Source: an uncultured Pelagibacteraceae bacterium
GTDB taxonomy: Bacteria > Pseudomonadota > Alphaproteobacteria > Pelagibacterales > Pelagibacteraceae
Reading direction: 5' to 3'
Assembly (NCBI GenBank): GCA_902609685.1
Contig: CACLSR010000008.1
Coordinates: 1-42,282, forward strand
Length of the DNA: 42,282 nt
Shown here in pieces: positions 1,366 to 4,714 of the stretch. Under the pieces are notes generated by a model, which saw only the letters and a program-made list of their open reading frames with translations, had not been told where the DNA came from and made no database searches. How positions within the stretch are numbered: position 1 is the stretch's first letter; each line of letters begins with the position of its first letter. The position numbers were made by a program, and so were the translations under genes.

Positions 1366-1438
1366 CCCTACTTATTAATTATGCGTTTTAACTTTAAACA
1401 TAAACTTAACAACAGGAGGTCCACTTCAAATAACGTAA

Positions 1439-1553
1439 TTAGCTTTAGTAAAAGCAGCTGTCGAGTAGCGGCAACGCCTCGTACCCTTGGGTCCCTTCAT
1501 TTTCCTTTCTTTCATAACCAAGGGTCTTTCAACAGCTGCAATACTAAGGCTAA
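1439..1553 (+). ncRNA. Structured RNA with a three-way junction
   Basis: A G+C-rich patch in an A+T-rich gap folds cleanly. Closing stem: 1439-1450 pairs with 1542-1553 (12 bp with one U-G), a small internal loop, then GCAGCTGT (1454-1461) with ACAGCTGC (1532-1539). Inside sit two hairpins. One is CGAG/CTCG plus GCG/CGC capped by a GCAA tetraloop (1462-1481). The other is ACCCTTGG (1483-1490) with CCAAGGGT (1518-1525), closing a pyrimidine-rich 27-base loop. The GNRA loop and the U-G pair only make sense on the plus strand. AGGAGG at 1414-1419 could pair with CCTTC in that loop as a pseudoknot. It does not look to me like tmRNA, 6S RNA, SRP RNA, RNase P RNA or a riboswitch I know. It may be a leader of the nurA mRNA or a separate small RNA. 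The whole gap 1366-1718 otherwise holds only an A+T hairpin at 1631-1649. Confidence 0.65.
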
Positions 1554-1718
1554 AAACAAAATTACTAAAATTCATTTAAGAAGCTTTACTAGTAGAAAAT
1601 CATGCTGGGTATTTAAACAAATCTTAAGAAGAAAATTTCATAAATTTTCAAATAAAAAATTAACTATTCGAACAAATATTCGAGGAACTAAAATTCAATA
1701 TTTTTGTGGAGCAAACCG

Positions 1719-3032
1719 ATGAGTAACGAAACAGATATTAAAAATAAAATAAAATCAAACTCATCTTTATTTACGAATTTTGTAAAAAATGCTGTTTCAG
1801 CATCTCCAAAAGTACAAAATAACTTTCTAGATGTTAGCGCTCAAGTTGCCCTTACTATTCAGAAAATTTTAGAAGATGCAGATTTAATTACAAACCTTGA
1901 GTACAAAGGGAAAGATTTCTGGTCTGAAAATAAATGTAAAACTTCATGCTTTGTTGATGGTGGAGTTGATAAAACATCTATAATCAGTAGTGCACCACTT
2001 AGTATAAGAACTGGCAGCTACATCGTTAAGCCAGATGCTGCAGATAAAAATAGAGAATTCTTTGAGGAAAGTATGGTGTTTTTAGGTGATCTATATGACC
2101 CTAAAAATGAACTCTATGACTTTGCTGAGGATGACTTTGATGAAGATCAAATGCTTAACAAGAAAAAAGATGGAGCTAGAATAATTTTTGAGGCAGTTAC
2201 TATTGTTAAACACATTTTGTTAAATAGAAAATTTGATTACTGTTTTTTACATGGCCCTATTGAAGCAACTGTAATGCCATTTACTGTAATGGGTTTTCCA
2301 ACATTTACTAAATTTGCTGTAGAAAATATGCTGCCTTTTTACAATAAAAATAAGCTTAATGCAGAAGCAAGACATTTCATCAATGTCTATTTAGAGGCCC
2401 TTAATTCAATTAAAAAAAGTAAGTTTCCTATTTACGGAATTGTGGAAACATCTAATTCAGCACCTTACATCAAAAACTTACTTTTTAACTATAAGTCTAA
2501 AGGAACTATTTCAGAAAAAGATTTTAAAAGCACTCTTGCAACTATCAAAAACTACAAAATTACAGACTCTCACTTACTAGAAATAATTCTACAAAGTGGC
2601 CAGGCAATTAAACCTCTTGAAGTAAAAAAACAAATTAAAGGATTTAGCGTTACTTCAGGATCGGCTTGGGAAGAAAAAATGGACTCTTTTCCAAGTGTTC
2701 ATATCGGATATATTAAAATCAATGATCATTCAGCTCCAATTAGAATTGAATCATTAAATCCATCAAAAAACTTAATTAAAGATTATGAATATATCTTAGC
2801 AACAGCAAGATTATTACCTAACTATGGTTTTCCAGTAGGTTTAAATGTAGTCGATAAATTTGCCAAAATTCCAAATTGGATGAGTAAGGCCTCAAGAAAA
2901 TATTATGCAACTCATTTATTAAAACAAGCTATCAGAAGTAAAGATCAGAACACAATCAGTTTAGCAGTAAAGATTTTATCAAAAAAAGTAAGGTCTTGGA
3001 GAAATAGACCATTAGGAGGGTTAGCAAGATAA
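1719..3032 (+). CDS. nurA: NurA-like 5'-3' nuclease
   Basis: A 437-residue protein of the NurA family, nucleases that work with the HerA translocase to resect DNA ends in archaea and some bacteria. The family metal-binding start of the core is visible as FVDGG at 78-82 (Asp80), followed by beta-rich segments, an internal GIVETSNSAPY segment and the C-terminal HIGYIKI...APIRIESL block that resembles the last conserved NurA strand. The ATG at 1719 is preferred over an in-frame TTG at 1704 because GGAG at 1708-1711 sits at ribosome-binding distance from it. The stop overlaps the herA start by one base, so the two are translationally coupled. It lies 353 bases after the sigma-factor gene, behind the folded RNA. 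Confidence 0.8.
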   Translation: MSNETDIKNKIKSNSSLFTNFVKNAVSASPKVQNNFLDVSAQVALTIQKILEDADLITNLEYKGKDFWSENKCKTSCFVDGGVDKTSIISSAPLSIRTGSYIVKPDAADKNREFFEESMVFLGDLYDPKNELYDFAEDDFDEDQMLNKKKDGARIIFEAVTIVKHILLNRKFDYCFLHGPIEATVMPFTVMGFPTFTKFAVENMLPFYNKNKLNAEARHFINVYLEALNSIKKSKFPIYGIVETSNSAPYIKNLLFNYKSKGTISEKDFKSTLATIKNYKITDSHLLEIILQSGQAIKPLEVKKQIKGFSVTSGSAWEEKMDSFPSVHIGYIKINDHSAPIRIESLNPSKNLIKDYEYILATARLLPNYGFPVGLNVVDKFAKIPNWMSKASRKYYATHLLKQAIRSKDQNTISLAVKILSKKVRSWRNRPLGGLAR

Positions 3033-4714
3033 TGAATACTAAAAAATGGAAATCTATTGGTACTGTTTTGGGTGAAACAAATATAAGTGAATTTTACTTT
3101 AGCCTAAAGAACTATAAAGCTAAAAAGGGTGACATTATTACTACAGAGTCAAAAGTTCCATCAAGTGAGGGAAAAATTGAAGAAGTAACAGTTTGGGGTA
3201 AAATTTCCTCAATTGAAAGCACAAATGTTTTCTTTCCAACTGAAGCTGCTCAAGAATTAACAAATGAAAATATTAATATTAGAGACACTATTCTTCCAAC
3301 AACTAGAGATGAGCTAATTTGTAAAGTTATTATCTTGGGTTTTACTTTGAAAAATAACTTAAAATTAATGCCTTTAAACTATCCTGTAAGACCTGCTGCA
3401 CCAGTGAGTTATCCATCTAGTGAAGATGTAGAGGCTTTATTGATCTCTGATTTAAACTCTGAACATCCGTTATTTATTGGAAGTTTACTAGCTAGAGATG
3501 CAGTTAAAATTAAAATTGATGCTGATAATTTAGTATCACGTCATGTTTCAATATTTGGAATGTCAGGTTCTGGTAAAACAGTAATGGTTAGAAGAATAAT
3601 GGATGAGCTTTTAAAGAAAAAGTATCCAATGCTAGTACTTGATATTCATGGTGATTATTTAGGATTTATTCAAAAACAAAAAAAACTATATCCTAAAAAT
3701 GAAGTTAAATTATTTTATCCTAATTTATCTGTTAGCTCAGATGACAAAGAAATTATTTATACATTAATTGATAAACTTGGAAACTCATTAACAGATCCTC
3801 AAAAAGATTTTTTAAGCTCACTATTAGAAAAAGTAAAATACGAAGGTGGTAGTTTACTTAAGTATATCGAGCTATTAGTTAGAAAAGCTAGAGAGTATGC
3901 ATCAGACTCCTCAAAATCTTTTAAAAATATTCGTCCAGCTTCAATGTATGTTGTGGTTAGAAGTCTTGGCCAAGTTGCAAAAAAGTTAAAAAATATGGAG
4001 CAAACTAACTTTAGACATAGACAAAAAATGAGTAAATTAAAGTTCGAAGAATTACCAGATGCTGCAACTGAACCAGAAAAAATTATTAATAAAGGTCAGT
4101 TAAGTATTTTATATCTTAAAGGATATGAAAACCTTCCAGCTAGTGCGATTGTATCAATATTATTGGAAAATCTATTTAAACATAGACAAGAAGTAGAAGA
4201 AGAAATCCCACCATTTTTAACTATAATTGAAGAGGCCCACAATTTTATCCCTTCAAGATCTGAAGACAAAGATAATCTTCCATCTGTTGATACTATAAGA
4301 AAAGTAATTACTGAAGGTAGAAAATTTGGAACCGGAATAATGATTATTTCCCAAAGGCCATCAAGATTAGATGAAACCATTGCTTCACAATGCAATAGTC
4401 AAATTGTATTTAGAATGGTTAATCAAAAAGATCAGAGAGCAACTACAAGAGACTCAGAAACTTTAAGTGTAGATGATTCTAAACAATTGCCTAATCTTGC
4501 GAACGGCCAGGGTATAATAAGTGGACAAGTAGTAAATTTTTCTCTCCCAGTTCAAATTAAATTTGATGCTGAATTAATCAATGATGATATCGGAAATGAA
4601 AACTTTATCTCAGCTGTAGAAAATTGGGATGACAAAGAATCTGTTAAACAAAGAAAAAAATTTGCTAAAGATTTCTCTAATATCACTTCAATTGATAGAC
4701 GGAGAGCTAATTGA
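3032..4714 (+). CDS. herA: HerA-like hexameric DNA helicase/translocase
   Basis: A 560-residue ATPase of the HerA/FtsK superfamily. The N-terminal 120 or so residues fit the HAS-barrel, followed by Walker A GMSGSGKT (176-183), DIHGDY (204-209), a Walker B-type block ending in IIEEAHNFIP near residue 400, and the HerA signature with GRKFGTG and SQRPSRLDE. In archaea HerA forms a hexamer that pumps DNA and drives NurA, and the partner is encoded immediately upstream. GGAGGG at 3015-3020 serves as ribosome binding site. A role in end resection, recombination or defence against foreign DNA is possible; HerA is known from several bacterial anti-phage systems, but no Sir2 or DUF4297 partner is present here. 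Confidence 0.88.
   Translation: MNTKKWKSIGTVLGETNISEFYFSLKNYKAKKGDIITTESKVPSSEGKIEEVTVWGKISSIESTNVFFPTEAAQELTNENINIRDTILPTTRDELICKVIILGFTLKNNLKLMPLNYPVRPAAPVSYPSSEDVEALLISDLNSEHPLFIGSLLARDAVKIKIDADNLVSRHVSIFGMSGSGKTVMVRRIMDELLKKKYPMLVLDIHGDYLGFIQKQKKLYPKNEVKLFYPNLSVSSDDKEIIYTLIDKLGNSLTDPQKDFLSSLLEKVKYEGGSLLKYIELLVRKAREYASDSSKSFKNIRPASMYVVVRSLGQVAKKLKNMEQTNFRHRQKMSKLKFEELPDAATEPEKIINKGQLSILYLKGYENLPASAIVSILLENLFKHRQEVEEEIPPFLTIIEEAHNFIPSRSEDKDNLPSVDTIRKVITEGRKFGTGIMIISQRPSRLDETIASQCNSQIVFRMVNQKDQRATTRDSETLSVDDSKQLPNLANGQGIISGQVVNFSLPVQIKFDAELINDDIGNENFISAVENWDDKESVKQRKKFAKDFSNITSIDRRRAN

What the first reader, a model, noticed from the sequence alone, without database searches (positions are those of the whole stretch)
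1439..1553. Unrecognised three-way-junction RNA between a sigma factor and nurA
Four helices pair without conflict: a 12-bp plus 8-bp closing stem, a GCAA-capped hairpin and an 8-bp hairpin with a pyrimidine-rich 27-base loop. The GNRA loop and a U-G pair fix the plus strand. The patch is G+C-rich in an A+T-rich genome, and the open frame across it gives a product without a single Asp or Glu, so it is unlikely to be coding. An AGGAGG 20 bases before the first stem has no start codon after it and could pair with CCUUC in the big loop.
Basis: seen in the sequence. Interest (0 to 1): 0.8.

Follow-up and report, generated by a model that had tools for sequence, protein, structure and literature searches.

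The report
Folded RNA inside a nurA-operon gene
In some SAR11 ocean bacteria, the messenger RNA of a small, very basic protein just ahead of a nuclease-helicase pair can fold into a conserved three-armed RNA shape, so the same letters are under selection twice, as protein and as RNA; what the fold does is not yet known.

Summary
Window 1439-1553 folds as described (z -6.95) and also beats shuffles that keep the protein (0 of 500). In relatives, down to about 45-60% NurA identity, most helices are kept by compensatory changes. A UA bulge and a GNRA loop stand in 22 of the 22 sequences used. No Rfam family matches the stretch.

The "not coding" inference is wrong. The RNA lies inside ORF 1381-1722, which is open in every relative examined and evolves as protein, most clearly 3' of the RNA. 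Synonymous change drops from 0.465 there to 0.264 in the RNA: dual constraint.

The in-frame AGGAGG uses a rare codon twice, yet stands in 28 of 29 loci. Its pairing with the big loop is no better than loop composition gives.

The element opens a fairly constant module (ORF-nurA-herA) of an accessory locus. The sigma-like gene upstream differs beyond BLAST recognition, or is below 60% identical, in 29 of 36 pairs of near-identical nurA loci.

Most likely it is a 5'-proximal cis-regulatory RNA inside the first cistron, controlling translation of the adjoining nurA-herA. That function is inferred, not shown.

The parts
1381..1722 (+). ORF (113 aa, no Asp/Glu, 31 K/R/H) that contains the RNA; its stop overlaps the nurA ATG
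   Evidence: frame open in every relative examined; third-position excess outside the RNA; pN/pS 0.32 in the 3' part, 0.58 in the RNA part, 0.76 in the first 19 codons; no match in Pfam, NCBIfam or PADLOC, PHROGs best E 0.38
1414..1419 (+). AGGAGG, an in-frame tandem of rare Arg codons (AGG AGG), Shine-Dalgarno-like, with no start codon after it
   Evidence: 28 of 29 loci; AGG is 7 of 136 Arg codons in ten window genes and 1 of 180 other Arg codons of 21 ORFs
1439..1450 (+). P1 outer stem, 5' strand (12 bp)
1542..1553 (+). P1 outer stem, 3' strand
   Evidence: pair 1447:1545 is A-U in 6 and G-C in 11 of 17 sequences
1454..1461 (+). P1 inner stem, 5' strand (8 bp)
1532..1539 (+). P1 inner stem, 3' strand
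   Evidence: weakest helix, 89.7% of cells paired
1462..1481 (+). P2 hairpin: CGAG - UA bulge - GCG - GCAA loop - CGC - CUCG
   Evidence: UA bulge 22 of 22 and GNRA loop 22 of 22 sequences used; not formed in L049 and absent from the reduced clade
1483..1490 (+). P3 hairpin, 5' strand (8 bp)
1491..1517 (+). P3 loop, 27 nt, pyrimidine-rich, holds CCUUUC (1504-1509)
   Evidence: synonymous rate here 0.42 against 0.20 and 0.23 on the two sides
1518..1525 (+). P3 hairpin, 3' strand
1526..1531 (+). junction J3/1 with CUUUC
   Evidence: CUUUC in 19 of 22 sequences; exceptions L035, L037, L046
490..1365 (+). sigma-70-family factor, the exchangeable upstream neighbour
   Evidence: Pfam Sigma70_r2 24.2 bits (cut-off 24), NCBIfam sigma70-ECF 50.7 (cut-off 42.9); exchange:
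1719..3032 (+). nurA
   Evidence: Pfam NurA 23.5 bits, cut-off 21
3032..4714 (+). herA
   Evidence: Pfam DUF87 (HerA central domain) 102.7 bits; PADLOC HerA 160.9 bits

Best explanation
It is a new conserved structured RNA that is also protein-coding. It sits near the 5' end of the first cistron of a nurA-herA module and most likely acts in cis as a translational control element. Shown: the fold as computed, its conservation by compensatory changes, the coding of the same letters, low synonymous change in the stems, the rare-codon AGGAGG, and the gene order. Inferred: that the genes are one operon; that ribosomes start at ATG 1381, directly after the exchangeable sigma gene or on a near-leaderless transcript; that they are slowed or held at AGG-AGG (rare codons plus anti-Shine-Dalgarno pairing) in front of the three-way junction; and that the state of the fold, perhaps set by ribosome density or by binding of the basic protein itself, decides how much of the ORF and, through the stop/start overlap, of nurA and herA is made. 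This would keep a nuclease-helicase of probable defence function under tight control whichever sigma module stands upstream.
For: Fold and codon-shuffle controls. Compensatory changes: 477 of 505 cells paired and 56 cells changed on both sides against 12.5 (sd 2.8) in shuffles, 22 sequences; on the MAFFT alignment of 17 alone, 93.9% paired and 16 such cells against 5.6. A covariance model built on those 17 finds L050, L051, L049 and L066 at 77, 65, 52 and 39 bits. Coding. Synonymous rate 0.20 and 0.23 on the stem sides, 0.42 in the P3 loop, 0.465 in the 3' part. AGGAGG constraint. Stop/start overlap or abutment with nurA in 26 of 29 distinct loci. The RNA codes for residues within the part predicted disordered (1-60, pLDDT about 42-51); the confidently folded part (61-110) lies outside it. 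In the order scan the 8 genomes with the ORF are 8 of the 9 with this NurA profile.
Against: No expression, binding or reporter data. AGGAGG-loop pairing is not above composition, so no switch is demonstrated. One locus with an open ORF (G703) lacks AGGAGG. P2 is not formed in L049 and absent from the reduced clade. In one search the measure 'further pair types' does not exceed shuffles (15 against 14.1; 167 of 500). The first 19 codons show only weak codon-like constraint (pN/pS 0.76), so the start at ATG 1381 is likely, not proven. Shuffle controls ignore phylogeny, and five distant rows were cut by hand to fit the structure. The function could lie in the RNA as a molecule and not in translation.
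Confidence: 0.42

Rival explanations
1. The Shine-Dalgarno-like sequence drives an alternative, internal start, and the fold gates it, giving long and short forms of the protein.
For: In the reduced clade (G527, G792, G694, G690) AGGAGG is followed 6 or 9 nt later by an in-frame ATG in 4 of 4 loci. In L050, L051, G569 and G728 an out-of-frame ATG follows 4 nt later. AGGAGG is kept at nucleotide level.
Against: In the main clade, the window included, no ATG/GTG/TTG follows at normal spacing; G703 has no AGGAGG.
Confidence: 0.2
2. The RNA is a working part of the system (bound by the basic protein or by the NurA-HerA machine), and the ORF is a dual-function transcript.
For: The 5 genomes with the RNA in the family scan all hold the nurA family. 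The conserved GNRA loop and UA bulge suggest tertiary contacts (inference). The protein is very basic (31 K/R/H of 113, no acidic residue).
Against: No evidence of a separate transcript. An RNA-less relative of the protein follows the ORF in G534 (profile match, E 7.5e-6) and, judged by eye only, in L049. The reduced clade has a single long hairpin.
Confidence: 0.12
3. The hairpin acts as DNA, as a folded single-strand site at which modules are exchanged.
For: The exchange junction lies between ATG 1381 and AGGAGG, just before the hairpin.
Against: G-U outnumbers A-C 28 to 9 and the loop is GNRA, which point to RNA. None of the neighbouring proteins scanned gave an integrase match, though not all neighbours were scanned. 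Exchange of whole genes explains the junction equally well.
Confidence: 0.06
4. Only the protein is conserved and the fold is a by-product.
For: The frame is open in every relative examined.
Against: 0 of 500 protein-preserving shuffles fold as well, twice; low synonymous rate on the stem sides; compensatory changes; in L066, L090 and L094 the loop motif CCUUUC stands in another reading frame than in the main clade (read by eye).
Confidence: 0.02
5. Pure non-coding RNA.
For: Strong fold and covariation.
Against: Conserved open frame and codon-like evolution, clear in the 3' part and weaker through the RNA.
Confidence: 0.03

Closest known systems
Candidate structured RNAs of 'Candidatus Pelagibacter ubique' (PMC2704228; passages read)
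   Same: Same bacterial group; cis-elements found by covariation ahead of operons (rpsB, rpsL and metY motifs in the passages)
   Different: That survey worked on intergenic regions and excluded those with a conserved coding sequence, so an element inside an ORF would be missed; its main text has no nurA or herA
Shine-Dalgarno sequences within coding regions (PMC5100845; abstract and start of introduction read)
   Same: SD-like sequence inside a translated frame
   Different: The paper reports depletion of such sequences in highly expressed genes; here one is kept through rare codons and precedes a conserved fold
Frameshift and bypass elements such as those of dnaX, prfB and phage gene 60 (recalled, not read)
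   Same: SD-like sequence and/or RNA structure inside a coding frame
   Different: No frame change is needed here: the same frame stays open before, through and after the RNA in every relative examined; slippery sites were not tested
phi29 packaging RNA (recalled, not read)
   Same: About 120-nt three-way-junction RNA that works with a ring ATPase
   Different: Here a terminal loop is GNRA, and the Rfam scan gave no match; loop-loop pairing was not tested

Membership tests
Any Rfam 15 family | score at or above the gathering threshold | tested here: not met
   Whole window: only four tRNAs elsewhere. Region 1366-1720 at E up to 10: four matches, the one overlapping the RNA being RAGATH-30 with 14.9 bits against 59.5 required
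cis-regulatory structured RNA | helices kept by compensatory change across species | tested here: met
   (shuffle controls not tree-aware)
cis-regulatory structured RNA | constant place before the same genes | tested here: met
   ORF in 8 and NurA in 9 of 297 order genomes, the 8 shared; the ninth, G141, has another nurA locus without the ORF. In genus g5, 9 of 151 genomes match NurA; 8 of them have the ORF upstream, G781 was not examined
cis-regulatory structured RNA | changes expression of the downstream gene | not testable with these tools
   needs reporters
Protein-coding gene | open frame with synonymous excess in relatives | tested here: met
   pN/pS 0.32 in the 3' part, 0.58 in the RNA part, 0.76 in the first 19 codons
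SD/anti-SD pseudoknot switch | pairing of AGGAGG with the loop beyond loop composition | tested here: not met
   27 sequences; median fraction of shuffled loops pairing as well 0.42, lowest 0.12
Translational bypass element | frame interrupted across the skipped segment | tested here: not met
   frame open through the RNA in every relative examined
NurA-HerA pair | NurA domain gene next to HerA ATPase gene | tested here: met
   above Pfam cut-offs
PARIS (AriA-AriB) | AriA ATPase with AriB partner | tested here: inconclusive
   AAA_15/AriA-like hits for the ATPase of L084 only; the three partner genes scanned have no hit; the window's contig does not reach that far

The most novel reading that the evidence does not exclude
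The fold is not a switch but a subunit: a translated mRNA whose 5' three-way junction is bound by its own basic product and by the NurA-HerA ring, serving as built-in RNA sensor or scaffold of a modular anti-phage machine whose sigma and ATPase module is swapped between strains.
Probability: 0.08. Interest if true: 0.92.

Novelty: new variant of a known kind. Interest (0 to 1): 0.64.

Why it matters
At least one survey of structured RNAs in this group set coding regions aside (PMC2704228), and this element shows what that can miss: letters under selection both as protein and as a branched RNA fold. It marks the start of the constant part of a modular, probably defensive locus in SAR11, dominant bacteria of surface oceans (PMC11066056, abstract). 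It also makes testable whether an SD-like pair of rare codons in front of a fold controls a nuclease.

Tried and rejected
Rfam at gathering and at E up to 10: nothing for this stretch. The AGGAGG-loop pseudoknot is not above composition. Viral contigs: no relative of NurA or of the ORF family and no exact match to two P2 patterns, so no phage link seen in that collection. Fold of the protein: C-terminal beta-alpha-beta-beta; whole-model mean pLDDT 66.7, pTM 0.44. VIA-align best Z 6.1 over 58 residues, a level its note calls common; Foldseek had no PDB match at E 0.001 or better. These rows exclude no family. The sequence hit 9hnh_A (E 0.00074, four weak stretches) I read as chance. A start codon shortly after AGGAGG, in frame, exists only in the reduced clade. 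A link with ribosome-deprived pelagiphage-infected cells (PMC11066056, abstract and section list seen) was considered and left as speculation. PMC10853773 and PMC12839542 were searched for four terms only; no NurA in either. Earlier reports of this RNA: five searches, of which I saw the listed top rows only, plus term searches in PMC2704228; none seen.

Rows left out. One search uses 22 of the 27 RNAs in the script's file: L049 (P2 not formed) and the four reduced-clade RNAs were dropped; L038, L053 and L064 had not been entered (close to or identical with entered ones). Five distant rows (L050, L051, L066, L090, L094) were cut by hand to fit the structure, with one bulged base removed in three, and the outer part of P1 is not in that count. 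Shuffles are not tree-aware. One search uses 19 of the 29 upstream stretches, a motif chosen after looking, and single-base shuffles. Searches use 18 of 21 ORFs (L049, L050, L051 left out of the 'close' set). L040 starts inside the element and was left out. One search lists G574, which is L047 again; counts here are without it. In one search L051 fails the stop/start test, but its nurA start there is a partial alignment start.

Full report
OBSERVATION. Free energy is -45.2 kcal/mol against a shuffled mean of -23.7 (z -6.95; 0 of 200 as low). Because the stretch proved to be coding, I added protein-preserving controls: with synonymous codons permuted or resampled, 0 of 500 reached the native -45.9 (means -26.5 and -15.9). 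G+C is 45% in the patch, 28% in the window, 31% and 24% in the flanking parts of the ORF.

RELATIVES. A NurA search of GTDB contigs gave 21 loci. 20 of them hold AGGAGG and the ORF upstream of nurA; L040 begins inside the element. The ORF family is sparse: 9 of 399 genus genomes, one of them the truncated L040 contig, and 8 of 297 order genomes. The same 8 are among 9 of 297 with this NurA profile; the ninth, G141, has a different nurA-herA locus. In the sister genus 9 of 151 genomes match NurA; 8 have the ORF upstream and G781 was not examined.

RNA EVIDENCE. On a plain MAFFT alignment of 17 sequences, 93.9% of cells pair; 6 of 34 pairs change on both sides (16 cells, shuffled mean 5.6), and sliding the partner by 1-3 columns drops pairing to 26-44%. 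One measure, further pair types, is no higher than in shuffles (15 against 14.1). A covariance model from these finds L050 (77 bits), L051 (65), L049 (52) and L066 (39), and in a family scan 5 of 247 genomes match, among them G688 (the L050 contig) and G703 (L090). Adding L050, L051, L066, L090 and L094 by hand (22 sequences, 23 inner pairs), 477 of 505 cells pair, 15 of 23 pairs have changes on both sides (56 cells, shuffled mean 12.5, sd 2.8), G-U cells are 28 and A-C cells 9, and the UA bulge and a GNRA loop (GCAA, GUAA or GAAA) occur in 22 of 22. These five rows were cut so as to fit the structure, so the second count leans towards it.

EXCEPTIONS. L049 keeps P1 but P2 is not formed. Four loci of the sister genus (G527, G792, G694, G690) have a reduced form: an outer stem plus one long hairpin with a pyrimidine-rich loop and no P2. 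The model does not find the one given to it, L067/L081 = G527. L048, L050, L052 and L054 depart from the usual place or letters of CCUUUC in the loop.

CODING EVIDENCE. The frame 1381-1722 is open in every relative examined. Differences by codon position among 18 close sequences are 0.165/0.153/0.31 in the 3' part, 0.17/0.16/0.21 in the RNA part and 0.23/0.12/0.30 in the 5' part. pS falls from 0.465 (3' part) to 0.264 (RNA part); within the latter the two stem sides have 0.20 and 0.23 and the big loop 0.42; pN is about 0.15 in both parts. The first 19 codons are less clear (pS 0.27, pN/pS 0.76). The ORF stop lies within -25 to +1 nt of the nurA start in 26 of 29 distinct loci. The others are L049 and G534, where another small gene intervenes, and L051, whose nurA start was taken from a partial alignment. 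A frame of at least 150 codons ends -8 to +27 nt from the ORF's ATG in 23 of these 29. AlphaFold gives a confident beta-alpha-beta-beta C-terminus (residues 61-110) and a disordered N-terminus (1-60), within which the RNA-coded residues fall. No protein family matches.

AGGAGG. It stands in frame as Arg-Arg in 28 of 29 loci, the exception being G703. AGG is 7 of 136 Arg codons in ten window genes and 1 of 180 other Arg codons in 21 ORFs, so the nucleotides appear selected. It can pair with the big loop, but shuffled loops pair as well (27 sequences, median fraction 0.42). The likeness of CUCCUUUC in some loops to the 16S tail is recalled and untested.

CONTEXT. In L082, L083, L084 and L085 the genes before the sigma-like gene are an AAA ATPase and a variable gene. 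The ATPase of L084 has AAA_15 and AriA-like matches; three variable genes scanned have none. The window's contig starts too late to show them. The sigma-like gene of the window passes curated cut-offs; of six from other loci five have sigma-70-family matches below the cut-offs and one (L082) none. Flanking gene clusters are shared between loci of both genera; that they are exonuclease- and hisG-like is recall from the sequences. Among 36 locus pairs with NurA at least 95% identical, the sigma-like protein is below 60% or undetectable in 29, while 3 pairs share a sigma-like protein at 79-82% with NurA at 80-89%. So the upstream module is exchanged, and similarity begins between ATG 1381 and AGGAGG. 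In 11 of 19 upstream stretches a TTGRA-N11-14-RMG motif occurs (shuffled mean 0.4, maximum 4), a post hoc hint of a promoter at the end of the sigma gene and of a near-leaderless transcript; the window and L042 lack it.

INTERPRETATION. A conserved RNA fold about 60-170 nt into the first cistron before nurA-herA, preceded by a rare-codon SD-like pair, is best read as cis control of translation. The internal-start rival is strongest in the reduced clade. No experiment decides. I saw no earlier report in the rows listed by the searches; the Pelagibacter RNA survey PMC2704228 (passages read) excluded regions with conserved coding sequence and its main text does not mention nurA or herA.

Noticed in passing
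490-1365 and L034-L054: Sigma-like genes upstream of near-identical ORF-nurA loci are unrelated by BLAST or under 60% identical in 29 of 36 pairs: an exchanged sigma/ATPase module in front of a constant nurA-herA module.
   Followed up: partly
60 nt before the ATG 1381 equivalents: TTGRA-N11-14-RMG promoter-like motif shared between unrelated sigma classes (11 of 19 stretches, post hoc), suggesting each sigma may drive the constant genes.
   Followed up: partly
L068 (G534); L049 after 2741: A second small gene related to the ORF (profile match in G534; by eye in L049) stands before nurA without the RNA structure.
   Followed up: partly
L081, L092, L093, L096: Reduced single-hairpin form with AGGAGG plus in-frame ATG; in L081 no sigma-like gene lies directly upstream.
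   Followed up: partly
1-332: End of a gene running off the window start, in the place of the unmatched variable gene of other loci.
   Followed up: no
L085 10886-11548: Extra 220-aa gene between nurA and herA with a weak DUF7508 match below the cut-off.
   Followed up: no
L094 (G728): The nurA match holds one in-frame TAA, so that copy may be broken or mis-assembled although its ORF/RNA is intact.
   Followed up: no
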